DNA of 64,000 nucleotides from Hyphomicrobium sp. 99 (GTDB lineage: Bacteria; Pseudomonadota; Alphaproteobacteria; Rhizobiales; Hyphomicrobiaceae). Numbering within the stretch: the stretch's first letter is position 1; every line of letters starts with the position of its first letter. Where the stretch lies: assembly GCF_000384335.2 (NCBI RefSeq), contig NZ_KQ031382.1, forward strand, positions 2,677,545-2,741,544, written 5' to 3'. The notes beneath the pieces are model-generated. The model had not been told where the DNA came from and did not search any database. It saw only the letters and a list, made by a program, of their open reading frames with translations. This document shows, in pieces, positions 42,178-55,611 of the stretch. The position numbers and the translations under genes are program-made.

Positions 42178-43002
42178 TCAGCCCGTAGCTCCGAAGGCTT
42201 TGCGCCGCTCCCTTTCTGCACGATCCGTCTGTCGCTTCGTAACGAAGGAAGCCAACAGCAAGCCGACGGTGACGATGCCGATCAGAATTGTCGAAATGGC
42301 ATTGATTTCCGGCGTCACGCCCAGTCGAACCTGACTGTAGATCTTCATCGGCAGCGTCGTCGCGCCGGGGCCCGTCGCGAAGCTTGAGATCACGAGATCA
42401 TCGAGTGACAGAGTGAATGACAGCAACCATGCCGAGATCACCGAAGGCGCAATGATCGGCAACGTCACCTGGAAGAAGGTATTGATCGGCGTCGCACCGA
42501 GATCCATCGCCGCCTCTTCAACGGACTTGTCGAAGTCCTGCAGGCGCGCCTGCACGACGACAGCCGCATAGCACATAGTGAACGTGATATGCGCCAGCGT
42601 AATGGTCCAGAAACCGCGGTCGAGCCCCATGGCGACGAACAACAGAAGCAGCGACAGTCCGATGATGACTTCCGGCATAACGAGCGGCGCGAAAATCATC
42701 CCCGAAAACAGCGTCTGGCCCCGAAACCGGCCGACGCGAACAAGCGTAATGGCAGCCAGCGTACCCAGAATGGTCGCGACAGTAGCGGATAGGAGGCCGA
42801 CGCGGATCGTGACCCACGCAGCGTCTTTCAGCGCCTGATTTTGCATCAGCGAGCTGTACCACTTCGTCGAGAAGCCAGCCCACACCGTGACGAGCTTCGA
42901 CTCGTTGAAGCTGAAAATCACGAGCAGCAGGATCGGAATGTAAAGGAACGCGAAGCCAAACGTGATCGACGTCAAATTGAACCAGGAGAAGTTCTTATTC
43001 AT
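42178..43002 (-). CDS. Polyamine ABC transporter permease, PotC/PotI type
   Basis: 274 residues from the ATG at 43002, overlapping the PotB-like stop (ATGA). About six membrane helices. The EAA loop is visible around DKSVEEAAMDLGATPINTFFQVTLPI. Second permease of the spermidine/putrescine uptake system. Confidence 0.9.
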   Translation of the reverse strand: MNKNFSWFNLTSITFGFAFLYIPILLLVIFSFNESKLVTVWAGFSTKWYSSLMQNQALKDAAWVTIRVGLLSATVATILGTLAAITLVRVGRFRGQTLFSGMIFAPLVMPEVIIGLSLLLLFVAMGLDRGFWTITLAHITFTMCYAAVVVQARLQDFDKSVEEAAMDLGATPINTFFQVTLPIIAPSVISAWLLSFTLSLDDLVISSFATGPGATTLPMKIYSQVRLGVTPEINAISTILIGIVTVGLLLASFVTKRQTDRAERERRKAFGATG

Positions 43003-43901
43003 CGCCCGCCCTCCCGCTCGATCTGCTGCTGACGCTGGAAGAGTACGATCGGGATCGTCAACACGAGCAACAGAATGACCGCCACCGCGGAGGCAAGGGG
43101 CCAATCACGATTGTTGAAAAATTCATTCCACAGCGTCTTGCCGATCATCAAGGTATCGGACCCGCCCAAGAGATCCGGGATGACGAACTCGCCGACCGCC
43201 GGAATGAAGACGAGGAGGCAACCAGCGAAGACACCGGGCAGCGACAGCGGAAACGTCACCTGCCAAAAGGCCCGCCACGGTCGAGAACCCAAGTCTTGCG
43301 CCGCTTCGAGCAGCGCAGGATTGATCTTCTCGAGGCTGGCGTAAAGCGGCAGGATCATGAACGGCAGATAGGAATAGACGATACCGATGTAGACCGCGGT
43401 CGTCGTGTTCATGATCTGCAGCGGCTCGCTGATAAGGCCGAGCTTCATCAGGAACATCGTGAGGAATCCTTCCGGCTTCAGGATCGCGATCCAGGCGTAG
43501 ATGCGGATCAGAAACGAGGTCCAGAACGGAAGGATGACGAGCATCATCAGCGTCGGCTGCCAGGATCGCGGCGCCCGCGCCATGCCGTACGCCATCGGAT
43601 AGGCAACGAGAAGCGTCAGGAACGTCGAGATCGCCGCGATCTTCAAGCTCGAGAGGTAAGCGTTGACGTAGAGCGGATCGCCGAAAATGAATGTGTAGTT
43701 CTCGAAATCGAGTTGCGAGATGAACGCCCCGATGCCGGTCGACCAGCTGAACGTCGGCACGTACGGCGGAATGGCCGTCGCAACATCGGACAGCGAAAGC
43801 TTGAAGACGATGAAGAAGGGAATGAGGAAGAAGATCAGCAGCCACAGATAAGGGGCAGCGATCACATACCAGCGTCCGAGGCCGTGGGTTTTTGTGCTCA
43901 T
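42999..43901 (-). CDS. Polyamine ABC transporter permease, PotB/PotH type
   Basis: 300 residues from the ATG at 43901, 8 bases after the ATPase stop. About six membrane helices, with the EAA-type loop LEAAQDLGSRPWRAFWQVTFPLSLPG. First permease of the putrescine/spermidine uptake system, coupled to the second permease. Confidence 0.9.
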   Translation of the reverse strand: MSTKTHGLGRWYVIAAPYLWLLIFFLIPFFIVFKLSLSDVATAIPPYVPTFSWSTGIGAFISQLDFENYTFIFGDPLYVNAYLSSLKIAAISTFLTLLVAYPMAYGMARAPRSWQPTLMMLVILPFWTSFLIRIYAWIAILKPEGFLTMFLMKLGLISEPLQIMNTTTAVYIGIVYSYLPFMILPLYASLEKINPALLEAAQDLGSRPWRAFWQVTFPLSLPGVFAGCLLVFIPAVGEFVIPDLLGGSDTLMIGKTLWNEFFNNRDWPLASAVAVILLLVLTIPIVLFQRQQQIEREGGR

Positions 43902-43909
43902 CGCTTGCC

Positions 43910-45106
43910 TCAGCCCGTCAGAACCACACCCGCATCGACCGGCCAGTCGAGCCAGACGCTGTCTTCCCAGCTGATCGACCGTTCCACAGTATGCGCAGCG
44001 TTGGCCCGAAGCGCCGTAATGCGTTCGCCGGGCGCCGTGCGGACATGATAATGAGAGATCGATCCGAGATAGCCGATGTCCTCGACTTTCCCCGGAATGA
44101 CATTGACCGCACTTGCCGGCTGCTCGTGCGAGATGCGGATTTTCTCCGGCCGCAGCGCCAGCCACACCTGTTGACCGACCGTCACCGGCTCTGAGCTGCG
44201 GGTTTTGAAAGCGTAACCGTCTTTCGCATTGATCTCGATGCAGCCATCACCGATCGCGGAGACTGTTCCCTCGAAGATATTCACGTCGCCGATGAAGCCT
44301 GCGATGTAGCGCGTCTTCGGATTCTCGTAGATATCGCCGGGCGTCGCGACCTGAACGAGGACGCCCTTCTCCATCACGGCAATGCGGCTCGCGACCGTCA
44401 TCGCCTCTTCCTGATCGTGCGTGACGATGATGAAAGTCGTGCCCGTCGTTTCCTGAATGTGCATCAACTCGAATTGAGCCTGCTGGCGCAGCTTCTTGTC
44501 GAGAGCGCCGAGCGGCTCGTCGAGCAACACGATGCGCGGCTTCTTGGCGATCGCCCGCGCCAGCGCTACGCGCTGCTGCTGTCCGCCGGATAGCTGGTTA
44601 GGTTTGCGTTTTGCGAACTGGCGAAGCTCCAGCATGCCCATGGCTTCGTCGACACGTTCGGCAATCAAGTTTTTGGGCATGCCCTCCTGGCGCAGTCCAA
44701 AACCGATGTTTCGCTCGACCGTCATATGCGGAAAGAGCGCGTACGACTGGAACATCATGTTCACAGGGCGCTGATACGGGGGAAGGTCCGTGATGTCCTG
44801 GCCCGCCACGATCATCCGGCCCTGCGTCGGCTTCTCGAAACCTGCGAGCATTCTGAGGAGCGTGCTCTTTCCGCAGCCCGACGGCCCGAGCAACGCGAAG
44901 AATTCTCTTTCATAGATGTCGAGCGTCACATCATTGACGGCGACGAAGTCGTCGAACCGTTTCGTCACCCCCTCGAAGCGAACGATCGGCGGCAAGTTCG
45001 GATTTTTCCAAGGCGCAAATCCCGACTGCGGCGCAGCCGTACGCGGTCCTGCACGCTGTGAAGAGGCATTGCTTGCCTGTGGATCGCGCGCAGTCACAAC
45101 GGTCAT
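43910..45106 (-). CDS. Polyamine ABC transporter ATP-binding protein, PotA/PotG type
   Basis: 398 residues. Walker A is GPSGCGKST, the signature is [15 protein letters not shown], Walker B is [12 protein letters not shown], and a TOBE domain follows (residues 290-398). An N-terminal extension of about 35 residues, rich in Ala, Ser and Pro, is unusual. It energises the polyamine permeases downstream. The gene lies downstream of the binding-protein terminator. Confidence 0.92.
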
Positions 45107-45164
45107 GTTTGACGTCCCTAAATCGACTCCATCGGCCCCAATTCCGATGGGGAGTGTAAAAAGA

Positions 45165-45198
45165 AAAAACCGCGCCAGTTTTTGCTGGCGCGGTTTTT
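45165..45198. terminator. Strong hairpin between the polyamine binding-protein and ATPase genes
   Basis: A perfect 14-bp stem, AAAAACCGCGCCAG with CTGGCGCGGTTTTT and a TTTTTG loop, lying just after the binding-protein stop. It would partially end transcription and give more binding protein than transporter. A second hairpin, CCATCGG with CCGATGG (45129-45150), precedes the ATPase start. Confidence 0.85.
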
Positions 45199-45200
45199 GG

Positions 45201-46310
45201 TTATTGCCCTGTCGTGATCCGTGTCCACATTCGGGTTACGATCCGTTGAGTTTTGTTGTCCCATGCCGTCTTCACATAGAGCTTCTTGAACGTCTCGGGA
45301 TCCGGATACACCGCCGGGTTCTTCAGAACACTCTCGTCGATATCCTTCTGCGAGGCAAGGTTGCCGTTGGCGTATTGAATGAAGTTCGACGCCTTAGCCA
45401 TCACTTCGGGCCGGTTGAGATAGTTAAGGAAGATGTGCGCCTCCTCGACATCCTTGGCATCCGCGGGGATGGCCATCATGTCGAACCACATCTGGGTACC
45501 TTCCTTCGGAATGTGATACTTGACCACCTGGCCGTTCTTGGCATCGGTTGCGCGCGTACCGGCCTGAAGGATATCGCCTGACCAGCCGAGCGCCATGCAG
45601 ATGTCGCCATTGGCAAGCGCGTTGATGTATTCCGAAGAGTGGAACTTCTTGATGTAAGGCCGGATCTTCATCATCAGATCTTCGGCCTTCTTGAAATCCT
45701 CTTCCTTGGTGGTGTTGGGATCGAGGCCCAGATAGTTGAGGACAACCGGGAGAATATCTTCCGGTGAATCAAGCACGTAAATTCCGCAATCCTTGAACTT
45801 GGCGGCATTCTCCGGCTTCAAGATGATATCAAGAGAATCGACCGGAGCATCCGGCATGCGCTCCTTGACCTTGGCTTCGTTGTAGCCAACACCGGTCGTG
45901 CCCCACATCCAGTTCATTGCGTACTGGTTGCCGGGGTCATACTGGGCAACACGATTGTAGACCTCGGGCCAAGCGTTCGCGAAGTTGGGGATCTTGGACT
46001 TGTCGAGCTTCTGGAAGACGCCAGCTTTGATCTGACGCGACAGGAACGACCCGGTCGGCACGACGACATCGTATCCGCTGCCGCCCGCTAGAAGCTTCGT
46101 TTCCAGAACTTCGTTGCTGTCAAAAACGTCGTAGACAACCTTAATGCCGGTCTCTTTGGTGAAGTCCGTCAGGATCTGCGGGTCGATGTAGTCCGACCAG
46201 TTGTAGACCTTGACTACCCTGTCTTCTGCATATGCGCCCGCACTGACTAACGTAACTGCAGACGCAATTAAGCACGCGGCGCAGCGCACCACTTTCCCTA
46301 CCGTTAACAT
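45201..46310 (-). CDS. Polyamine ABC transporter substrate-binding protein, PotF/PotD type
   Basis: 369 residues with a signal peptide ending AGAYA. The mature start VVKVYNWSDYIDPQ, then VVVPTGSFLSRQIKAG, are typical of PotD/PotF. Binds putrescine or related polyamines in the periplasm. It is the promoter-proximal gene of the unit and divergent from the PuuA-like gene. Confidence 0.9.
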   Translation of the reverse strand: MLTVGKVVRCAACLIASAVTLVSAGAYAEDRVVKVYNWSDYIDPQILTDFTKETGIKVVYDVFDSNEVLETKLLAGGSGYDVVVPTGSFLSRQIKAGVFQKLDKSKIPNFANAWPEVYNRVAQYDPGNQYAMNWMWGTTGVGYNEAKVKERMPDAPVDSLDIILKPENAAKFKDCGIYVLDSPEDILPVVLNYLGLDPNTTKEEDFKKAEDLMMKIRPYIKKFHSSEYINALANGDICMALGWSGDILQAGTRATDAKNGQVVKYHIPKEGTQMWFDMMAIPADAKDVEEAHIFLNYLNRPEVMAKASNFIQYANGNLASQKDIDESVLKNPAVYPDPETFKKLYVKTAWDNKTQRIVTRMWTRITTGQ

Positions 46311-46779
46311 TGGAATTCCTCCAGAACCCGTCGCAACCAGGACGCCCGAAAAGAGCGGTTTAGTCGCAAACAGCCGCTCTCATCGGCGTTTTGCTAAACA
46401 TCCGATATACTGCGCAATTAAATTGCGGAGCACAACAGATCAGTTAAAGAAATATTGAAGTAATCATCGTCAGCATAAGGAGTAAAAAGCCAAACTAAAC
46501 TGCGCGTACTTGAGGCATGTGCTACCCTGTTGAACAGTTGCATGATCTCATCGGTTCGGGGGGCGGCAAAAGCTATGCTTCACGGCTGCTATTGAGGTTC
46601 CTTCGTCGGCCGGGTTAAGCTCGATGGCTTTCTGACCTCGAAAATCCAACATGTCTGACGATCGCTTAAAGCAAAATGCGGGCTTGGCCGATAACAGGCT
46701 TGGCAGCAGCCGTGACGCATTTCTTCGATCCCACCGACGAGCCGCAGAAACAAATAATGCAAATTACTCAGGTGTCCTT
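46311..46779. other. Divergent regulatory region between the polyamine binding-protein gene and puuA
   Basis: 469 bases with no recognised gene. It contains a 15-base perfect palindrome at 46413-46427. The stretch from 46651 is in frame with puuA and could encode a longer N-terminus, but has no good ribosome-binding site. Confidence 0.45.
46413..46427. promoter_or_regulatory. Candidate operator in the divergent polyamine region
   Basis: CGCAATT-A-AATTGCG, a perfect 7-bp-arm palindrome about 100 bases upstream of the binding-protein start. Confidence 0.4.
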
Positions 46780-48180
46780 ATGACCGCCCCACCCGCACGG
46801 ATCCTCAACGAAGACGGTGACTTCGGCGCCGGCTCGACGCCCGAAGCGCTTCGCGATTGGCTTCGTCAGCACCGCATCGAGGAAATTGATTGTGCTGTAC
46901 CTGACATCGCAGGCGTTGCCCGCGGCAAGACGATGCCAGCCGAGAAGTTCGTAAAGCTCGATGCGGTACACCTTCCGATCTCGATCTTCCATCAGACGAT
47001 TACAGGCGATTACGTCGGCTTCGAAGAGGACGGCCAGCAACTCTACGCCGAAAGCGACCTGATGATGGTGCCGGATCTTTCGACCATCCGGCCCGCTCCA
47101 TGGGCATCGAGCCCGACTGCCCAGGTTATTCACGACGCACAATGGCAGAGCGGAGATCCCGTTGAGATCGCACCGCGCAACGTGCTGAAGCGTGTCGTCG
47201 ATCTTTACGCGAAAGAAGGCTGGGTGCCGGTCGTCGCGCCCGAACTCGAATTCTATCTGACGAAGACCAATCCCGATCCCGACTATCCGCTCGAACCGCC
47301 GATGGGGCGTTCGGGTCGCCCGGGCGCTGGTCGCCAAGCCTACAGCCTCGGCGCTGTCGACGAATATGACAAGATCGTCGACGACATCTACGAGTTTGCC
47401 GAGCGCCAGTATCTGAAGATCGATACGATCATTCAGGAAGGCGGCGCGGCTCAGCTCGAGATCAACTTGCTGCACGGCGATCCCGTCGATCTCGCCGATC
47501 AGGTTTTCCTCTTCAAGCGGACAATTCGGGAAGCTGCATTCGCCCAAAATTGCTACGCGACGTTCATGGCCAAGCCCCTTGCCAACGAGCCCGGCAGCGC
47601 CATGCACGTGCATCAAAGCGTCGTCGATGCGAAGACGGGGAAGAACATCTTCACGCAGGGGAACGGCGAACCGAGCAAGCTGTTCTTCAACTTCCTCGCG
47701 GGTCAGCAGGCCTACCTGCCCGCCGCGATGTGCTTGATCGCACCCTACGTCAATTCCTATCGCCGCCTCGTGCCGAATGGCGCCGCGCCGATCAACGTCG
47801 AATGGGGCTACGACAATCGTTCGGCTGGATTGCGAGTGCCCATCTCGCCGGCATCGGCGCGACGTGTTGAAAATCGCCTCGCCGGCGCCGATTCAAATCC
47901 CTATGTGGCGCTCGCAGCTAGCCTCGCCTGCGGCTATCTCGGAATGAAAAACGAGCTAGAACCGCGGCAGGCGGTCGTCGGCAATGCCTACCGAAACGAC
48001 CATCAGCTGCCGCGTGGCCTGCTTGAAGCCCTGACGGATTTCGAGGAGAACACAGCGCTTCATGACATTCTCGGCAAACGCTTCTGCCACGTCTACCTCG
48101 CCTTGAAGCGCAGCGAATTCGAAGAATTCATGCGCGTCATCAGCCCGTGGGAGCGCGAGCATCTTCTGCTGAGCGTCTAA
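46780..48180 (+). CDS. Glutamine synthetase family protein, PuuA-like (gamma-glutamylputrescine synthetase)
   Basis: 466 residues from the ATG at 46780 (AGGTG 7 bases upstream); an ATG at 46651 would add 43 residues. The glutamine synthetase fold is complete, with DIAGVARGKT, VAPELEFYL, GGAAQLEINLLHGDP and AMHVHQSV. PuuA attaches glutamate to putrescine; the opposite divergent block encodes polyamine transport and a PuuB-like oxidase. PuuC, PuuD and a PuuR-like regulator are absent from the window. A hairpin terminator follows. Confidence 0.85.
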   Translation: MTAPPARILNEDGDFGAGSTPEALRDWLRQHRIEEIDCAVPDIAGVARGKTMPAEKFVKLDAVHLPISIFHQTITGDYVGFEEDGQQLYAESDLMMVPDLSTIRPAPWASSPTAQVIHDAQWQSGDPVEIAPRNVLKRVVDLYAKEGWVPVVAPELEFYLTKTNPDPDYPLEPPMGRSGRPGAGRQAYSLGAVDEYDKIVDDIYEFAERQYLKIDTIIQEGGAAQLEINLLHGDPVDLADQVFLFKRTIREAAFAQNCYATFMAKPLANEPGSAMHVHQSVVDAKTGKNIFTQGNGEPSKLFFNFLAGQQAYLPAAMCLIAPYVNSYRRLVPNGAAPINVEWGYDNRSAGLRVPISPASARRVENRLAGADSNPYVALAASLACGYLGMKNELEPRQAVVGNAYRNDHQLPRGLLEALTDFEENTALHDILGKRFCHVYLALKRSEFEEFMRVISPWEREHLLLSV

Positions 48181-48502: not shown

Positions 48503-49648
48503 ATGACGTTAAAGGCAGAGACCTTGGCTGATAGAAAAAGCGAAACCATTCTCTTCGTCGATGACGAACCGCTTTCGCTGAAATACTTCAAAAGCTCGAT
48601 CGGCAAATACGCCAACGTTGTCACGGCGAGTAGCCCAGAAGCAGGCTTGCAGATCCTGGCGACGGCCGGCAACGACATTTCAGTTGTCGTCAGCGACGAG
48701 CGCATGCCGCGTGACAGCGGCGTGTCCTTTCTGAGCGAAGTCCGAAAATCATGGCCCTCAACAGTCCGTGTACTGACGAGCGCCTACGCCAATATCGATA
48801 ATCTCCAGCAGGCAATCAATGCGGCGGCGATCTATCGCTTCGTGCCGAAACCCTGGAATCTCGACGAATTATGCGAGGCGATGGAAGACGCCCTCCACGT
48901 CGAGCGGTCCGCTGCAGCCCTAGCCGAACCAGTGCTCGGTCCGAGCACTCGCGGAGACGCGGAAAGTGCAAATCTCGCCCTCCTCGGCATTCTCGCCAGC
49001 GGCCTCGAAGCCCCGTTGAAATCGCTGGATACCGAAGCGGAGCTACTCGCCGAGTTGAGCCTTCCCGGTTCGTTGGATTCTTCCAACCCCGTCGGGACGT
49101 CATATCTGGGATCGTGGGCATCCCGGCTGCGGCTTGGAAAGATGGCCACATCTGCTGCGCAAATCCGCCGTGACGTTGAACACTGCCGGTCGCTCGCAAG
49201 CTCCATTGGCAATCTCGTCCGCAGCCTCGCTGAGCCCGCCGTCACTCAAACGTCATCAATGGCCGACACCATTTCCGAAGTTGCCGAACAAGCTGTGATC
49301 TCTCACTCCGGTAGAGCCTTCGGCGGACCCGGCATCGGCCAGGACTTCGCCTACCGCATGCCCCGCGAGATTATGAAGTTCGTACTGACGAATTTGCTCC
49401 GCAGTGCGACAAAATCATCTTTTTCAAGCCTCGACACGTTCCCGAGAGTGGAATTGATTTCCGGTGCCGAACATAACGAGGTTCGAATCACTTCGGTGTT
49501 GGAACGTGAACAGCCTTTAGCGCTGGAAAATAATCAGTCGTGGAGGACGGTCCGCTGTGCCCTTTGGGCGTTCGGAGGCGAACTCCTCTCCTCCATTGAT
49601 AAAACTTTGAGCACATCTACACTGACCATGTGCCTCCCGAAGGCATAA
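48503..49648 (+). CDS. Response regulator with degenerate kinase-like C-terminus (PhcQ-like)
   Basis: 381 residues. The receiver has ILFVDDEPLSLKYF, phospho-acceptor Asp65 in VVVSDERMP and Lys in RFVPKPWN. The C-terminal 220 residues resemble a histidine kinase core, but the H-box region reads LASGLEAPLKSL with no histidine, so it is probably inactive as a kinase. Proteins of this shape act in PhcQ/PhcR-type quorum-sensing circuits. It is 107 bases upstream of the methyltransferase gene and resembles the regulator at 53805. Confidence 0.7.
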   Translation: MTLKAETLADRKSETILFVDDEPLSLKYFKSSIGKYANVVTASSPEAGLQILATAGNDISVVVSDERMPRDSGVSFLSEVRKSWPSTVRVLTSAYANIDNLQQAINAAAIYRFVPKPWNLDELCEAMEDALHVERSAAALAEPVLGPSTRGDAESANLALLGILASGLEAPLKSLDTEAELLAELSLPGSLDSSNPVGTSYLGSWASRLRLGKMATSAAQIRRDVEHCRSLASSIGNLVRSLAEPAVTQTSSMADTISEVAEQAVISHSGRAFGGPGIGQDFAYRMPREIMKFVLTNLLRSATKSSFSSLDTFPRVELISGAEHNEVRITSVLEREQPLALENNQSWRTVRCALWAFGGELLSSIDKTLSTSTLTMCLPKA

Positions 49649-49728
49649 TTCCTCGGGGTGTATCTCCAAGGCATTGATATTCCGAATTCATCTAAACGGT
49701 TTCTAAATTACGCAGGGCCAAACTGAAC

Positions 49729-49758
49729 CAATGTGATAATCTTTGTTTACCCACATTG
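49729..49758. promoter_or_regulatory. Inverted repeat upstream of the PhcB-like gene
   Basis: CAATGTG at 49729-49735 and CACATTG at 49752-49758, a 7-bp-arm inverted repeat with a 16-base spacer, ending 24 bases before the start codon and 12 before the ribosome-binding site. It is a candidate operator. Confidence 0.35.
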
Positions 49759-49782
49759 TCGTTCAGTTATGGAGCAGTCCCC

Positions 49783-51180
49783 TTGCGCATCGAACGAGAT
49801 ATTGATCGCACGGTCTCTTTTAGAAGCAGCCAGGGCACGGTCTTTCGCGGAACCCTGAGCAAGCTCTCAAGACGCAATATTGTCTTCGAGATCTACAATC
49901 CATTTTCACCCGTCCAGACCAGCGAGGTCCTCAGCGATCTCAAGGTGCGACGCGGCAAGAACCTCGTCTATCAGGGTGATGCGGTCGTAACCGGCATCGT
50001 CACCACGAGCATTCTCGTGGTCGTGTCCGCGACGCTGGTCAATCAGTGGTCCGCAGTCGACGCAATCATCTCGGACCCCGCCGGACTCGGATCCGAGGTC
50101 GGCCGTTTCGTCGATGAGTGGGATCGGGCTAACAAGCTCCAGCCGAACTATCAGCTCAAAGTCGCTGATCTCCGGTCATTTCTGAGCGACTTGAGCTTCT
50201 GGTTGGATCAGGTCGACCTGGCGATCGAAGGCGAACCCGGCGCGAGCCATGCCGTTCTCGACCCTGAAAGATATGAAGAGATCAAAGCGCCTGTGATGCC
50301 GCGCCTGACACAGCTCTTTCTCGAACTCGAGGAAGCGTGCCGCCAGCTCGAAGTCGACGAGGTCGAAAATCATAAGCAGCTGGCCCAGCGCGATCTGCTG
50401 CCGCTAATGATGGCTTCGCCCTTCTTCAACCGTGTCTATTCCAAGCCCCTCGGCTACGCGGGCGACTATGAGATGGTCAACATGATGTTCCGCAAGGAGC
50501 GTCGTGGAAAAACGACCTATGGCCAGATTATTAATGATTGGTTGCTGAACGGCGGACCACCCGAAGCACACCGCAACCGCATCTACATGCTCGGAAAGAT
50601 GCTCGACAAGGCAGCTGAAGAAGCAGCGGCGGCGAACAAGCAACTCCGTATTTTGAACGTCGGCTGCGGGCCGGTGCAGGAACTCCAGCTCTTCCTTTCG
50701 AAGAACAAGGAAGCCCACCGCTTCTCCTTTGATCTGCTTGACTTTAACGCCGAAACGCTCGCCTACGCCAAACGCCAGATCGAGGCGGCGACAGCCGGCA
50801 GCGAAGAAGCGCCGAAGGTGACATATATCCTGAAGACCGTGCAGGATCTTTTGCGCCAAGCCATTGAGCTTCCGGAGAATTCCAAGACCTACGACATCAT
50901 CTATTGTGCCGGCCTGTTCGATTACCTCTCCGACCGCGTCTGCACCAAACTGGTACGCCTGTTTTATCAGTGGTGTGAACCTGGCGGACGCGTGATCGTG
51001 ACAAATGTGCATTCGTCAAACCCTGTGAAAGGTTTGATGGAGCATATTATGGAGTGGCACCTCGTGATGCGTGACGAGTCGGATATGGTCCGGCTTGCCC
51101 CTGATCTTGGGCCGCTAAAGATTTATACAGATGAGACGGGTATCAACGTCTTTCTGGAGATAGATAAACCGACCGTTTGA
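49783..51180 (+). CDS. PhcB-like SAM-dependent methyltransferase (fatty-acid methyl ester signal synthase candidate)
   Basis: 465 residues from a TTG at 49783, with GGAG 8 bases upstream; another TTG at 49756 is 27 bases earlier. The N-terminal 90 residues are beta-rich, as in the PilZ-like N-terminus of this family. The middle has KPLGYAGDYEMVNMMF, a family hallmark, and the SAM site is ILNVGCGPVQELQLFL. Members are annotated as extracellular factor (3-hydroxypalmitate methyl ester) synthases; in Ralstonia, PhcB methylates a 3-hydroxy fatty acid to make the quorum signal. Its stop is 4 bases before the sensor kinase gene. Confidence 0.8.
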   Translation: MRIERDIDRTVSFRSSQGTVFRGTLSKLSRRNIVFEIYNPFSPVQTSEVLSDLKVRRGKNLVYQGDAVVTGIVTTSILVVVSATLVNQWSAVDAIISDPAGLGSEVGRFVDEWDRANKLQPNYQLKVADLRSFLSDLSFWLDQVDLAIEGEPGASHAVLDPERYEEIKAPVMPRLTQLFLELEEACRQLEVDEVENHKQLAQRDLLPLMMASPFFNRVYSKPLGYAGDYEMVNMMFRKERRGKTTYGQIINDWLLNGGPPEAHRNRIYMLGKMLDKAAEEAAAANKQLRILNVGCGPVQELQLFLSKNKEAHRFSFDLLDFNAETLAYAKRQIEAATAGSEEAPKVTYILKTVQDLLRQAIELPENSKTYDIIYCAGLFDYLSDRVCTKLVRLFYQWCEPGGRVIVTNVHSSNPVKGLMEHIMEWHLVMRDESDMVRLAPDLGPLKIYTDETGINVFLEIDKPTV

Positions 51181-51184
51181 CGGC

Positions 51185-53824
51185 ATGGATGACAAGAACG
51201 ACTTACGACGCGCCTTCGAGGCTGAGGAGCAAGAGCTTCGGCTAAGGCAGTCGAAGGTCGCTTGCATCCTTGGCATTGTTCTGATCCCCGCCGGGATCGT
51301 CCTCGATCGCATCACCTATTACAACCAGGTCAACACGTTGACCGGGATCCGGCTCGTTGCTGCGGGCCTGATTGCGATCATTTATGCTTTGCACTTCTGG
51401 GACAAGACAGCAGCCCATGTCCGCTATCTGACGATGGCGGGCCTGCTGATCGCCGTCGCGTCCATCGCGGTCATGATCGGCATCACGGACGGCGCGAACT
51501 CCACCTACTACAATGGCCTCTTCCTGATCCTGTTCGCAGTCGGCGTATTGGCGCCTATGCAGCCATTCGAGGCAGCGCTTCTCTGTATCTCGACCCTCGG
51601 GATTTACATCATCGCGTGTTTGCAGGTGCCCACCGCCGCCGACACGACGAAAACGTTGATGAACAACCTCTACTTTCTCGTCCTCACCTGCATCATTTCG
51701 GTCACCGCTGTTCATTTCAACTATCGGCGCCGCTTCAACGAATTCCGGCTGAAGTTCAAGCTCGCCTCACAGCATCAGGAACTGTCGGCGCTCGATCGGT
51801 TGAAATCTCAGTTCTTTGCAAACGTTAGCCACGAGCTGAGAACCCCGCTGACGCTTATTTTGGCGCCCGTTGAGCGGCTAAAAACCGACGTCGCGGCCCT
51901 AAGCCCGTCCGCCGAGCAGCTGCTGGACGTCATCGAGAACAATGCGCTTCGGCTGCTTCGGCTTGTGAACGATATTCTGAGCCTGATCCGCCTCGAGGAA
52001 GGCCGCGCTACGCTTTCCAAGAAGCCGGTCGATATGGCGCACTTCATGAAACACACGGCCGCCTCGATGAAGCATCTCGCTTCGCTGAAGGAGGTCAATC
52101 TCGAGCTGGCGGAGCCGACCGGCGATCTTCTGATCGATGCCGATCCGGACGCACTCGAGAAGATCGTAAGCAACGTCATCGCCAACGCGATCAAGTTCAC
52201 GCCGCCCGGAGGCCGGATCGACATTTCGGCCCGGCGCGAAGACGATATGGTGACCATCAAGATTTCCGATACCGGCATCGGTATTCCGGCCGAGCAGCTA
52301 CCGCACATCTTTGATCGCTTCTATCAGGTCGATGGATCCGCCACGCGCCGTCACCAGGGCCTGGGTCTCGGCCTCGCCCTCGTCCGGGAGCTGATTACGC
52401 GGCATGGCGGCGACGTCACAGCCACAAGCGACTCAGGGCACGGCACGACTTTCATTTTACGTTTTCCTCATGCACTCCAGATTACGCAATTCGACATGAG
52501 CAATTCCGAAGAGAAGCCGGATGGACTTGCCGACGATCCGCTGCGCACCTTCGATCGTAAAGCATCGGCGCGCGCCATTATGGTGAGTGACAACGCAACG
52601 TCAGGGATCGGCAATCTGAGCGATCCCAACGAGCAGGATGGTCGCATAGAGCTGCCGCTTCTGCTCGTCGTCGACGATGAACCGGATATGCGCCGCTATC
52701 TGGTTTCCATGCTTCGCGAAAACTATCGCATCATCGAGGCGCCCGATGGCATCACCGCCCTCGAAAAGGCGAAGGAACAAAAGCCTGATCTGATTTTGCT
52801 CGACGTCATGTTGCCAGGCGTGACGGGGCTAGAGGTCTGCCGCTCGCTCAAGGAAAGAGCCGAGACGCGAGCCATCAAGATCATCATCTTGACCGCGAGA
52901 GCCGACGAAGAAGCAAAGATCACCGCTCTGAAACATGGCGCCGACGACTTTGTCATAAAGCCATTCAGCGGCGTGGAAGTACGCTCGCGTATCGCCAACC
53001 TCATCAGAGCCTCGCAACTCGAAACCAACCTTCACCGGACGAACGCCGAACTCAAGCAAAGCCTGCAGCAGTTGCGTGAGACCGAGGCCGCCCTCGTTCA
53101 AAACGCGCGCCTCAGCGCACTTGGTACGATGGCAGCCGGCCTACTGCACGAAATCGGCAATCCGCTGAACTTCATGGGCACGGCGCTGCAATTGGCCGCG
53201 CGTGACCCAACGATTCAAGCTGATCCCGACACCGCGGATACGCTGAAGGACATCCACGCCGGCTATGAACGCATTCACCGCGTCGTCACCGACCTCCGAG
53301 GCTTCACCGCGCCGCATCGCCCCGAGCACCCACGGCCGTTCCATATGGAATCCGCCATCGACCATGCGCTTCGTTTTACGGCGCATATTCAGAAGGGCAT
53401 TACGATAACAAGGAACGACGCACCGGATGATTTGGTCGTCGGCTCGCAGTCGACGATCGCCCAGGTTCTCGTCAACCTCATCGTCAATGCCGTCGCCGCA
53501 GTCCGCTCGATCGAAGAAGAACGTAAGCCTGAGATAACCATTGCGTCGGTTGTTGAGGGAGATGAACTGATTGTCTCTGTACGGGACAACGGGACCGGCA
53601 TCGATCCCAAGATCCAAACTCAGATCTTCGACCCATTTTTCTCGACAAAAGAAGTCGGTGAAGGAATGGGCCTGGGCTTGGCAGTCAGTCACCGCATCAT
53701 CGCGAACCATGGGGGTTCATTGACTGTTAAGAGTAGTCTTGGAGAGTGGACCGAGTTCCGTTTCAACCTCCCGATCTCGTCGGACAAAGAGAACCAGGTC
53801 TTCCATGGAGTCGTTTCGTACTGA
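51185..53824 (+). CDS. Hybrid sensor kinase: six-TM sensor, kinase, receiver, second kinase (PhcS-PhcR fusion-like)
   Basis: 879 residues. Six hydrophobic segments lie between residues 23 and 180, with no large periplasmic domain. Then comes a HisKA domain with His216 in NVSHELRTP, an ATPase domain ending near 435, a receiver around 490-610 with Asp540 in LLDVMLPG, and a second kinase with His655 in LLHEIGNPLNF and its own GMGLGLAVSHRI ATPase motif. In Ralstonia, PhcS (membrane kinase) and PhcR (receiver plus kinase) are separate; this protein has both in that order. It would sense the product of the upstream methyltransferase. Confidence 0.8.
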   Translation: MDDKNDLRRAFEAEEQELRLRQSKVACILGIVLIPAGIVLDRITYYNQVNTLTGIRLVAAGLIAIIYALHFWDKTAAHVRYLTMAGLLIAVASIAVMIGITDGANSTYYNGLFLILFAVGVLAPMQPFEAALLCISTLGIYIIACLQVPTAADTTKTLMNNLYFLVLTCIISVTAVHFNYRRRFNEFRLKFKLASQHQELSALDRLKSQFFANVSHELRTPLTLILAPVERLKTDVAALSPSAEQLLDVIENNALRLLRLVNDILSLIRLEEGRATLSKKPVDMAHFMKHTAASMKHLASLKEVNLELAEPTGDLLIDADPDALEKIVSNVIANAIKFTPPGGRIDISARREDDMVTIKISDTGIGIPAEQLPHIFDRFYQVDGSATRRHQGLGLGLALVRELITRHGGDVTATSDSGHGTTFILRFPHALQITQFDMSNSEEKPDGLADDPLRTFDRKASARAIMVSDNATSGIGNLSDPNEQDGRIELPLLLVVDDEPDMRRYLVSMLRENYRIIEAPDGITALEKAKEQKPDLILLDVMLPGVTGLEVCRSLKERAETRAIKIIILTARADEEAKITALKHGADDFVIKPFSGVEVRSRIANLIRASQLETNLHRTNAELKQSLQQLRETEAALVQNARLSALGTMAAGLLHEIGNPLNFMGTALQLAARDPTIQADPDTADTLKDIHAGYERIHRVVTDLRGFTAPHRPEHPRPFHMESAIDHALRFTAHIQKGITITRNDAPDDLVVGSQSTIAQVLVNLIVNAVAAVRSIEEERKPEITIASVVEGDELIVSVRDNGTGIDPKIQTQIFDPFFSTKEVGEGMGLGLAVSHRIIANHGGSLTVKSSLGEWTEFRFNLPISSDKENQVFHGVVSY

Positions 53825-55046
53825 TCAGCCGGTTGAGATCCTGATCGTCGACGACGAGCCGCAGGCCGTCAAATATTTCAAGAAGGCGTTCGGCACGCGC
53901 TACGATGTGCTGACCGCGACGAGCGCCGACGAAGCCGAATCCCTCATTCTCTCCGGCAACCACAACATCGCGCTCGTCATTTCCGACCAGCGCATGCCGG
54001 GACGAAGCGGCGTCAGCCTTCTGAACCGTATTCGTAATGAGCGGCCCGACATCATCCGGATGTTGACGACGGCCTATGCCGATCTCGATAGCGCCATCGA
54101 TGCAGTCAACAAAGGCGAGATCCTTCGCTACATTTCGAAGCCGTGGGATCTCCGCGTGCTCGAAGCCGAAATCGAGCAGGCGATCACCTTTTATCTCCTG
54201 AAGAACGAATACGACATGCTCCTGCGCGACAAGCTCAGCGCGTTGCATCGTACTCTTTTGCGCGATCGGATGAACGACCTCGCGATGCTGTCGGGGTTGC
54301 TGCCTTACAATAACGCGCCGCTGACGATGTATCAGTACTTGAAGGATTCGCTCGCCGAAACATCCTGGCGGCCGTCCGCACAAAAGGCTTGGTTGCAGCT
54401 CCGTATCCGCGATCACTGGCGTATTCCGGTCGAAGAGACCCAGCGCGCCGTCGATCTTTCAGGATCGTTGACGACGCCGCCGCTTTTGGCGGACGCTCAA
54501 GTAGCTGAAGTCGACTTGATCGCCACCCTGTCGGCATGCGCCGAAGCAATCAATAAGGACCTTGGCGCAAAGCAGGTCGTCATCCACGCCAACCGCAAGC
54601 AAATCTTCGTCTCCGCTGACCCGGCAGCGCTCAGTGAGATCATGATGCGCCTGCTGGATCCGATGAGCCAGTGGGCTGCCACCGGCAGCACACTGATCGT
54701 CAATCTCTCGCAGGAGATCGATAATGGTGACGTCGACATCCATTTCGAGCTCCGCAATTGCGAGCCCCACAGGTCAATGCAGGATTGCGTGCTTTTCACG
54801 CCGCCGCTGCACACGGCGCCGAAGCGCGCCAGCGACTATCTGAAGGCAACGCTTGCCATCGGCCACATCGGAGGCACGATAAGCTCGCCGCCCATGGAAA
54901 ACGGCTACAAGCAAATCCACATTACACTACCCGCGCGCGCAAAGACCGGCGCCCATAAGATCAACGCGCTCCCGAAGCAGTGGCTGCAGGACCTGAGCGA
55001 CGAGTACGAAAAGTGGGTACTGGGCACGCTCGAAATCGCAGCGTGA
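53805..55046 (+). CDS. Response regulator with kinase-like C-terminus (PhcQ-like)
   Basis: 413 residues from the ATG at 53805, overlapping the kinase stop by 20 bases. The receiver carries ILIVDDEPQAVKYFKKAF, Asp61 in VISDQRMPG, and RYISKPWDLR. A helix links it to a C-terminal region that is kinase-like in outline but lacks a clear H-box. Its tight overlap with the hybrid kinase suggests it is the kinase partner. A PhcQ-type protein closes the Phc operon in Ralstonia too. Confidence 0.75.
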   Translation: MESFRTDQPVEILIVDDEPQAVKYFKKAFGTRYDVLTATSADEAESLILSGNHNIALVISDQRMPGRSGVSLLNRIRNERPDIIRMLTTAYADLDSAIDAVNKGEILRYISKPWDLRVLEAEIEQAITFYLLKNEYDMLLRDKLSALHRTLLRDRMNDLAMLSGLLPYNNAPLTMYQYLKDSLAETSWRPSAQKAWLQLRIRDHWRIPVEETQRAVDLSGSLTTPPLLADAQVAEVDLIATLSACAEAINKDLGAKQVVIHANRKQIFVSADPAALSEIMMRLLDPMSQWAATGSTLIVNLSQEIDNGDVDIHFELRNCEPHRSMQDCVLFTPPLHTAPKRASDYLKATLAIGHIGGTISSPPMENGYKQIHITLPARAKTGAHKINALPKQWLQDLSDEYEKWVLGTLEIAA

Positions 55047-55066: not shown

Positions 55067-55611
55067 CTAAGCGTTTAGTCCCTCGAGTAACTTTGTGATC
55101 GCCGCGTCCGATTCATTTAACAGCGGCGGCAGCTGGCGGCCGAGTTCCAGAACGGTCAATCCGTGAACAAGCGCCCATAGCGCGGCAGCCTGACTTCGAC
55201 CGGCGCCCGCTTAAAAAGGCGCGCCCGCTGACCGCGCGTCAAAATGTCGGCAATAATCAAAACCGGAGCGCATGAAGCCTCCTTCAGCGAGGCATCACCG
55301 CTCTTGTCGATTTCCGAACTGAACATAAGTTCGAAGAGAGACGGGTTCGCGCGACCAAAATCCAGATATGCTTTTGCAAGCGCAATCAATTCGCTATGCG
55401 GAGAACCGCCGACCGGCAAAATCGCCGTGATCAGGTCCTCCTGCAGTTGACGATAACCCTGCAGTGCGAGTTCGGCCAGTAGCGCGGCTTTGTCGGAAAA
55501 GTGCTTGTAGGGCGCAGCATGGCTTACCCCCGCCCGCCGCGCCACTTCGCGCAGGGTGAAATGCCACGCTTTTCCCTCACGAAGCATCTCTCGTGCGTTT
55601 TCTATCAGCAC
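55067..55611 (-). pseudogene. TetR-family regulator, frameshifted
   Basis: The N-terminal HTH is intact (LREVARRAGVSHAAPYKHFSDKAALL), and the frame ends at 55156 in an out-of-family tail after VEV. In the next frame, from about 55191, the expected C-terminus continues as QAAALWALVHGLTVLELG and reaches a stop at 55067. One missing base near 55191-55200 explains it. Either the gene is a pseudogene or there is a sequencing error. The start (GTG at 55611) is uncertain. It is convergent with the regulator gene before it. Confidence 0.75.

What the first reader, a model, noticed from the sequence alone, without database searches (positions are those of the whole stretch)
48503..55046. A PhcBSRQ-like quorum-sensing operon with the sensor kinase and response regulator fused
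In one direction lie a PhcB-type methyltransferase (KPLGYAGDYEM, NVGCGPVQELQ), then an 879-residue protein with six TM helices, kinase (His216), receiver (Asp540) and second kinase (His655), then a PhcQ-like regulator overlapping it by 20 bases, plus a second PhcQ-like regulator upstream. In Ralstonia solanacearum PhcB makes a 3-hydroxy fatty acid methyl ester sensed by PhcS and passed through PhcR; the domain order of the fused protein is exactly PhcS followed by PhcR. I know of Phc systems mainly in Burkholderiales, so one in a methylotrophic alphaproteobacterium, with a fused kinase and a second regulator, would be new. No PhcA-like LysR output regulator is present in the window.
Basis: partly seen in the sequence, partly recalled or inferred. 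Interest (0 to 1): 0.88.

Follow-up and report, generated by a model that had tools for sequence, protein, structure and literature searches.

The report
Two-kinase relatives of Phc quorum sensing
A soil methylotroph carries its own version of the cell-to-cell signalling genes known from the plant pathogen Ralstonia, and its sensor protein has an extra kinase and relay module that relatives in several bacterial phyla share but the textbook Ralstonia-type sensor lacks.

Summary
Window 48503-55046 carries four same-strand genes, conserved in Hyphomicrobium: RR1, a full-length PhcB-family methyltransferase (43% identical to Cupriavidus PhcB), an 879-aa six-TM sensor with HK1-REC-HK2, and RR2. The 879-aa protein is not 'PhcS followed by PhcR'. 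Its sensor and SECOND kinase match PhcS (224 bits against 54 for HK1); HK1-REC is an extra cassette between them. PhcR exists separately: one branch of a regulator tree (100/100) puts RR1 with PhcR and RR2 with PhcQ. RR1 is a PhcR whose kinase half has decayed. So all four Phc components are present, as R-B-S(long)-Q. Among 82 loci, the short (PhcS-like) sensors are all betaproteobacterial (38 of 38); none of the 38 long loci besides the window is recorded as such: they come from Alpha-, Gamma- and Deltaproteobacteria, Myxococcota, Planctomycetota and Verrucomicrobiota. A 2023 survey gave phc a restricted, betaproteobacterial distribution. Whether the long form is ancestral is unresolved (AU p 0.56, 0.18). 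No PhcA orthologue, but only 2 of 18 carrier genomes have one. Signal and density sensing are untested. New variant of a known kind.

The parts
48503..49648 (+). RR1, 381 aa: PhcR-type regulator (receiver + decayed histidine-kinase half). Phospho-Asp context kept (VVSDERMP); H-box His lost (LASGLEAPLKS where PhcR has LAHELxTPLxS); G-boxes lost.
   Evidence: On the PhcR side of a 59-row tree, 23 against 36 rows, 100/100; C-terminal half aligns to PhcR kinase half, hhalign 96.8%, 215 columns; alignment
49783..51180 (+). PhcB-family SAM methyltransferase, 465 aa: small six-strand N-terminal domain (model residues 9-85), helical linker, methyltransferase domain.
   Evidence: 43% identity to the C. 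gilardii and C. basilensis proteins
51185..53824 (+). Long PhcS, 879 aa: six-TM sensor (1-200), HK1 (His216), receiver (Asp540), HK2 (His655). HK1-receiver is the extra cassette; sensor + HK2 = PhcS.
51185..51784 (+). Six-TM sensor domain, homologous to the PhcS sensor (weak MASE8 match, below cut-off).
   Evidence: PhcS-sensor profile 141.8 bits on residues 5-200; MASE8 E 0.0094, 16.6 bits vs cut-off 26.2
51785..53002 (+). Extra cassette (about residues 201-606): HK1 with intact ATP-site motifs, and receiver with Asp540.
   Evidence: absent from 38 of 38 betaproteobacterial short sensors
53069..53794 (+). HK2 (about residues 629-870), the PhcS-type kinase with the shared H-box GLLHE(I/V)xNP(L/V)N.
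   Evidence: PhcS-kinase profile 224.4 bits at 630-864 vs 53.6 at 212-429; junction stretches
53805..55046 (+). RR2, 413 aa: PhcQ-type regulator (receiver + degenerate histidine-kinase-like C-terminal half).
   Evidence: PhcQ profile 193 vs PhcR 128 bits; on the PhcQ side of the tree; no Pfam match in the C-terminal half at E up to 1; model pLDDT 85.2, best PDB matches LvrB chains

Best explanation
This is a Phc-type quorum-sensing operon of Hyphomicrobium in the order phcR(decayed)-phcB-phcS(long)-phcQ. Shown by sequence: homology of all four parts to the Burkholderiales operon, conserved phospho-sites, and the extra HK1-receiver cassette. Inferred: PhcB methylates a fatty-acid-derived carboxylate (a 3-hydroxy acid in Ralstonia) to a diffusible methyl ester. 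The six-TM sensor binds it and sets HK1. HK1 phosphorylates Asp540. The phosphorylated receiver gates HK2 in cis, as in Rec-controlled kinases such as LvrB. HK2, the PhcS-equivalent kinase, phosphorylates PhcQ (RR2), and perhaps RR1. PhcQ has no DNA-binding domain and acts by protein contact on an unknown partner other than PhcA. In Burkholderiales the cassette is absent, so the sensor drives the same kinase directly.
For: Full-length PhcB homology, 43% to two Cupriavidus. Window R22 aligns with R22 of C. basilensis PhcB and is R in 75 of 82; phcB R22C in Ralstonia lowers signal output (PMC6989110, passages), though the Ralstonia protein itself was not aligned here. HK2 = PhcS kinase: 224 vs 54 bits; best domain is the second kinase in 37 of 39 long sensors; HK2+PhcS one group, support 93. 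RR1 with PhcR and RR2 with PhcQ, 100/100. A PhcQ-type gene follows the long kinase in 33 of 34 loci with at least 900 bp of room. Phospho-sites conserved. In Ralstonia, phcQ deletion alters 96.8% and phcR deletion 22.9% of positively QS-dependent genes (PMC8578825, passages), which fits a decayed PhcR beside a kept PhcQ. LvrA (HK-REC-HK) phosphorylates LvrB (PMC5863495, passages).
Against: No tool here shows the product, ligand binding, phosphotransfer or density response. 3-OH-PAME was not recovered from C. metallidurans although its phc genes are conserved (PMC2864759, passages), so the signal may differ. No PhcA orthologue, so the output is unknown. Proteins were compared with Cupriavidus, not with Ralstonia itself. 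The HK2+PhcS group (support 93) is below the 95 threshold. RR1's receiver alone scores higher on the PhcQ than on the PhcR profile (120 vs 95).
Confidence: 0.68

Rival explanations
1. One reading: the 879-aa protein is PhcS fused to PhcR, with two PhcQ-like regulators.
For: The domain order HK-REC-HK is formally that of PhcS followed by a REC-HK protein. RR1's receiver alone scores higher on the PhcQ profile.
Against: The fused receiver barely matches PhcR receivers (39 bits vs 95 and 119); the PhcS kinase is the second, not the first; HK2 groups with PhcS, not with PhcR kinases; PhcR is present separately.
Confidence: 0.05
2. Same parts, but not quorum sensing: PhcB makes a modified lipid or other carboxyl methyl ester that the same cell senses (membrane or metabolic self-monitoring), and the kinase chain controls envelope or biofilm genes.
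For: No output gene or PhcA found; no signal measured; two distant relatives of the methyltransferase domain sit beside GGDEF/EAL genes.
Against: All four parts are homologous to a system with a proven diffusible signal; synthase, sensor kinase and PhcQ-type gene stay together across phyla in this set.
Confidence: 0.22
3. Direction reversed: short PhcS is the original and HK1-REC was inserted once in an ancestor of all long forms, which then spread between phyla.
For: Forcing all long forms into one clade is not rejected: p-AU 0.559 on the methyltransferase tree, where the forced tree was even 1.45 log units better, and 0.177 on HK2.
Against: The careful methyltransferase tree nests the short clade beside gammaproteobacterial long forms (98/88); long forms span several phyla, short forms one class in this set.
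Confidence: 0.3

Closest known systems
Phc quorum sensing (phcBSRQ + phcA) of Ralstonia / Cupriavidus
   Same: Full-length PhcB-type methyltransferase, six-TM PhcS-type sensor domain, PhcS-type kinase, PhcR-type and PhcQ-type regulators, clustered on one strand.
   Different: Extra HK1-receiver cassette in the sensor; gene order R-B-S-Q; PhcR kinase half decayed; no PhcA orthologue; alphaproteobacterial host.
LvrA/LvrB of pathogenic Leptospira
   Same: LvrA has the same HK-REC-HK order and LvrB is REC-HK; LvrA is the best NCBIfam match of the 879-aa protein (318 bits, residues 197-863); LvrB chains are the six best PDB fold matches of RR2.
   Different: LvrA has a PAS domain and is predicted cytosolic (PMC5863495, passages); the NCBIfam match is far below the cut-off (1200); the fold match has low TM-scores (about 0.3); RR2's kinase half looks degenerate, while LvrB's works.
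Lqs system (LqsA/LqsS/LqsR)
   Same: Small-molecule synthase with sensor kinase and regulator; coexists with phc in many Betaproteobacteria (PMC10653808, passages).
   Different: Different genes and signal by that paper; not compared by sequence here.

Membership tests
Phc system | PhcB methyltransferase, full length including N-terminal domain | tested here: met
   residues 7-459 aligned, 43% identity to C. gilardii and C. basilensis; 465 aa against 464-468 aa in Ralstonia (PMC8578825, passage)
Phc system | PhcS: six-TM sensor joined directly to a PhcS-type kinase | tested here: not met
   Sensor and kinase both homologous but separated by HK1-REC
Phc system | PhcR: receiver plus histidine kinase | tested here: inconclusive
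   RR1 is on the PhcR side of the tree, 100/100, but its kinase motifs are lost
Phc system | PhcQ: receiver plus own C-terminal half, no DNA-binding domain | tested here: met
   RR2; no other Pfam domain
Phc system | Gene order phcB-phcS-phcR-phcQ | tested here: not met
   Order here RR1(R)-B-S-Q
Phc system | PhcA orthologue in the genome | tested here: not met
   No hit at E 1e-20 in G000; 11 of 18 carrier genomes have some LysR match, but a clear orthologue (88-100%) is in 2, both Cupriavidus; the query is one of these two
Phc system | Product is a 3-hydroxy fatty acid methyl ester | not testable with these tools
   Needs LC-MS
Phc system | Density-dependent regulation | not testable with these tools
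   Needs mutants and expression data
LvrA/LvrB | HK-REC-HK hybrid kinase | tested here: met
LvrA/LvrB | NCBIfam LvrA score over cut-off | tested here: not met
   318 vs 1200 bits; six-TM sensor instead of PAS
PilZ (for the PhcB N-terminal domain) | Sequence-profile match to PilZ | tested here: not met
   No Pfam PilZ match; hhalign probability 0.6% against a PilZ set that held some wrong stretches. Fold similarity was not tested separately.

The most novel reading that the evidence does not exclude
Phc signalling is an old system crossing several phyla. Its common form uses a two-kinase sensor in which a first kinase and an internal receiver gate the PhcS kinase, with PhcB, that kinase and PhcQ as universal core, PhcR dispensable and PhcA a late local add-on. 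The Ralstonia/Cupriavidus system, from which the known biology comes, would be the stripped-down branch.
Probability: 0.42. Interest if true: 0.78.

Novelty: new variant of a known kind. Interest (0 to 1): 0.62.

Why it matters
A 2023 comparative paper gives phc a restricted, betaproteobacterial distribution, and the system is studied mainly for plant disease. Relatives with a longer sensor in harmless methylotrophs and in uncultured Planctomycetota and Verrucomicrobiota would make fatty-acid methyl esters a candidate for a widespread bacterial signal, testable in culturable species such as Hyphomicrobium facile. They also bear on an open question, how PhcS, PhcR and PhcQ share the work: in the long loci the kinase-PhcQ pair is the constant part, PhcR may decay or be absent, and PhcQ's uncharacterised C-terminal half looks like a dead histidine kinase.

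Tried and rejected
PhcS+PhcR fusion: rejected. RR1 as a second PhcQ: its receiver scores higher on the PhcQ profile (120 vs 95 bits), but so do the receivers of gammaproteobacterial proteins that are clearly PhcR-type (L016 147 vs 125, L020 141 vs 126), so that score does not discriminate outside Betaproteobacteria; tree and C-terminal half decide. Rooting the long/short change: the careful tree favours long-first, but AU tests do not exclude the other root. A first HK tree rejected HK2+PhcS as one clade (p 1.6e-07) and HK2 alone (p 0.02); it had a true HK2 (the split L048) labelled 'other'. I rebuilt it with that row relabelled, the row L008_R dropped, and more long sensors. In one search the re-rooting list was empty, so I use only its unrooted split (short sensors on one side, support 100, 73 rows; four incomplete sensors left out). 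PhcA by way of E. coli LrhA: a recalled resemblance, wrong lead; PhcA was then located beside fur as described for C. metallidurans. PilZ nature of the PhcB N-terminal domain: no support (28 of 30 fetched PilZ loci were tried, 23 gave a stop-free stretch, at least two of those printed were not PilZ). Conserved output gene beside the operon: of ten window genes searched around it, the flanking ones found matches close to the operon only in Hyphomicrobium-type loci. Fold search of the PhcB model: the 50 listed of 1707 matches cover the methyltransferase part; rank 1 (3ocj) has no assigned function. Promoter scan: 9 sites against 3.4 (sd 1.7) in shuffles, three of them at 49507-49649 just before the methyltransferase gene; terminators 10 against 8.0; consensus matches only, not used. 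Papers on Phc with Hyphomicrobium, Planctomycetes or Alphaproteobacteria, or a hybrid PhcS: none relevant in the held library; one search's one hit was an unrelated cytochrome paper. A 2026 review, in the passages seen, speaks of phc in Ralstonia only (PMC13220807).

Full report
What is there. Four same-strand genes: RR1 48503-49648, methyltransferase 49783-51180, 879-aa kinase 51185-53824, RR2 53805-55046. The window lies in a 4.1-Mb genome with 68 receiver-domain matches and a single match to this methyltransferase. Nearest named relatives are Hyphomicrobium: methyltransferase 97% identical in Hyphomicrobium sp. AWTP1-10 and 95% in H. facile DSM 1565. The methyltransferase is found in 21 of 103 genomes of the family (15 of 22 of the genus, own included; one of the 21 is a partial match), in 6 of 397 genomes drawn from the order (five in this family, own included, and one domain-only match) and in 7 of 398 drawn from the phylum, own included. 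In that sample of the order it is full-length only in this family.

Relatives. With a Paraburkholderia plasmid locus and the window that makes 82 loci, chosen by similarity to the methyltransferase. I read the neighbouring ORFs with searches seeded from the window's own domains and sorted the sensors: 39 with sensor, HK1 and receiver ('long', window included), 37 short, 6 other. Of the 39, five are incomplete: L018, L029, L041 and L080 run off their contigs and L068 ends early. Of the 6, L035 is short with its methyltransferase ORF read too long (so 38 short), four are cut by contig ends (L011, L030, L074, L079), and L048 has the long form split in two overlapping ORFs. All 38 short loci are betaproteobacterial: 37 by NCBI rank, plus the Paraburkholderia plasmid. 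None of the 38 long loci besides the window is recorded as betaproteobacterial: Alpha 7, Gamma 10, unplaced Pseudomonadota 2 (close to Hyphomicrobium by sequence), Deltaproteobacteria 1, Myxococcota 1, Planctomycetota 10, Verrucomicrobiota 7. All the deltaproteobacterial, myxococcal, planctomycete and verrucomicrobial loci are MAGs by title, so single assignments may be wrong; L048 lies on a 4.85-Mb Verrucomicrobiota MAG chromosome. Isolates with the long form include H. facile (L004), Salinisphaera hydrothermalis (L020) and Ectothiorhodospiraceae WFHF3C12 (L016).

What the 879-aa protein is. A profile of 38 short PhcS-type kinases scores the window 224.4 bits at residues 630-864 (HK2) and 53.6 at 212-429 (HK1). 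Across the 39 long sensors the best domain is the second kinase in 37; the other two (L041, L080) run off their contigs before HK2. A PhcS-sensor profile scores 141.8 bits on residues 5-200, hits all 39 long sensors, and outside the sorted sensors hits only L035, which is itself short. In a quick tree of 70 kinase domains (22 of the 39 long sensors plus the split L048, 12 of the 38 short) HK2 and PhcS form one group (support 93, under the 95 threshold) apart from HK1 (96), PhcR kinases (94) and 7 other kinases. The junction is visible: short sensors go from the last TM through a coiled-coil-like linker straight into GTxxAGLLHE(V/L)NNPVN, long ones into HK1, with G(T/R/S)xxxGLLHE(I/V)xNPLN only after the receiver. 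So the difference is an HK1-receiver cassette between the two halves of PhcS.

The regulators. Profiles from 34 PhcR and 35 PhcQ of short loci give RR2 193 bits for PhcQ and 128 for PhcR. In a careful tree of 59 chosen regulators one branch, 100/100, separates a PhcR side (23 rows: 10 betaproteobacterial PhcR, 5 gammaproteobacterial first regulators, 5 RR1, 3 Hyphomicrobiaceae regulators on the opposite strand) from a PhcQ side (36 rows, including 5 RR2). RR1's C-terminal half aligns to the PhcR kinase half (hhalign 96.8%) but has lost the H-box His and G-boxes. RR2's C-terminal half aligns to it too (94.0%; three comparisons with the methyltransferase as control gave under 1%). Its model (pLDDT 85.2) shows receiver, helices and HATPase-like fold, and the six best PDB matches are LvrB chains, E 3e-13 to 4e-12, with low TM-scores (about 0.3). 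I read PhcQ as a receiver with a degenerate kinase half. A PhcQ-type gene follows the kinase in 33 of 34 long loci with at least 900 bp of room; the exception is L068, whose kinase ends early. A PhcR-type gene with at least 35 bits on the PhcR kinase-half profile is near in 10 of those 34; four of the 10 (L025, L027, L059, L072) score only 38-55 bits. In these loci methyltransferase, sensor kinase and PhcQ are the constant set.

History. On a careful methyltransferase tree of 64 rows (59 of the 82 loci plus 5 outgroups; 23 near-copies or cut loci left out) the short clade is 100/100 and sits beside three gammaproteobacterial long forms (98/88), inside a group (86/99) that also holds the window. 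That suggests Burkholderiales lost the cassette once. But the outgroups are very distant, one supposed outgroup (L068_second) fell inside the long forms, and forcing all long forms into one clade is not rejected (p-AU 0.559, forced tree slightly better; on HK2 0.177). Loss versus insertion is open.

PhcA. In C. metallidurans phcA lies next to fur (PMC2864759, passages). A LysR gene found there in both Cupriavidus genomes was taken as PhcA, and the C. basilensis copy was searched in 18 carrier genomes. Eleven have some LysR match at E 1e-20, but clear orthologues (100 and 88%) only the two Cupriavidus. The six other Betaproteobacteria (Paraburkholderia, Duganella, two Hydrogenophaga, Pseudorhodoferax, Polaromonas) have best matches of 27-32% identity, and the window's genome has none. 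So PhcA is not part of the general system in this sample, and its absence here is not evidence against Phc kinship of the rest.

Mechanism. Phosphotransfer from PhcS to PhcQ is stated for Ralstonia in a paper's introduction (PMC12993560, passages), with PhcQ binding and stabilising PhcA (PMC13320629, abstract). For the long form I infer sensor to HK1 to Asp540, which gates HK2, which phosphorylates RR2. The steps are modelled on LvrA-LvrB, where LvrA phosphorylates LvrB (PMC5863495, passages) and receiver phosphorylation activates the following kinase (PMC13269768, passages). Nothing in this chain was measured here.

Known or new. One source already names relatives 'extracellular factor (EF) 3-hydroxypalmitic acid methyl ester biosynthesis protein', so PhcB kinship is not new as annotation. 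[quoted passage not shown] Searches for Phc with Hyphomicrobium, Planctomycetes or Alphaproteobacteria, or with a hybrid PhcS, found nothing relevant in a library that holds open-licence papers only. Of the 12 papers that hold 'phcBSRQ' I saw passages of six and the abstract of one; the rest only as listing. The long sensor and the wider range therefore look unreported, within those limits.

Noticed in passing
55156-55611 (-): A 151-aa TetR-type ORF (TetR_N plus part of TetR_C_33) between RR2 and the aldehyde dehydrogenase; no match at E 1e-15 in the 81 loci read, including syntenic Hyphomicrobium loci; perhaps a strain-specific insertion or truncated gene.
   Followed up: partly
42999-48180: ABC transporter genes with a solute-binding protein and a glutamine-synthetase-family gene next to the operon, shared with the Hyphomicrobium loci; they recall polyamine uptake and use (recalled, not tested) and look unrelated to signalling.
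   Followed up: partly
L101:3746-4792 and L102:3698-4741: Distant relatives of the PhcB methyltransferase domain on Roseateles and Rhizobium plasmids, near GGDEF/EAL genes; 143 plasmid records carry relatives, 125 of them Rhizobium.
   Followed up: no
L100:3953-6572: On a Pseudanabaena plasmid a short relative of the methyltransferase domain faces a HAMP sensor kinase and a response regulator, a different synthase-like/kinase pairing.
   Followed up: no
L068:6278-9380: A Planctomycetota locus has two tandem full-length PhcB-like genes (227 and 394 bits), the only one of the 82 loci with a second match.
   Followed up: no
L048:9383-11838: In a Verrucomicrobiota MAG chromosome the long sensor is split into overlapping sensor-HK1 and REC-HK2 ORFs; real split or frameshift is undecided.
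   Followed up: no
L012, L013, L023, L038, L043 (PhcQ-type rows of alignment A2): These Planctomycetota and deltaproteobacterial/myxococcal PhcQ-type proteins keep an H-box-like stretch (GL(S/G)H(H/Q)IRN), not seen in the Hyphomicrobium or Burkholderiales rows, as if PhcQ decays stepwise from a receiver-kinase; L050 lacks it.
   Followed up: partly
49507-49649 (+): Three promoter-like matches at the end of RR1, just before the methyltransferase gene (9 found in the region against 3.4, sd 1.7, in shuffles); the methyltransferase may have its own start.
   Followed up: no
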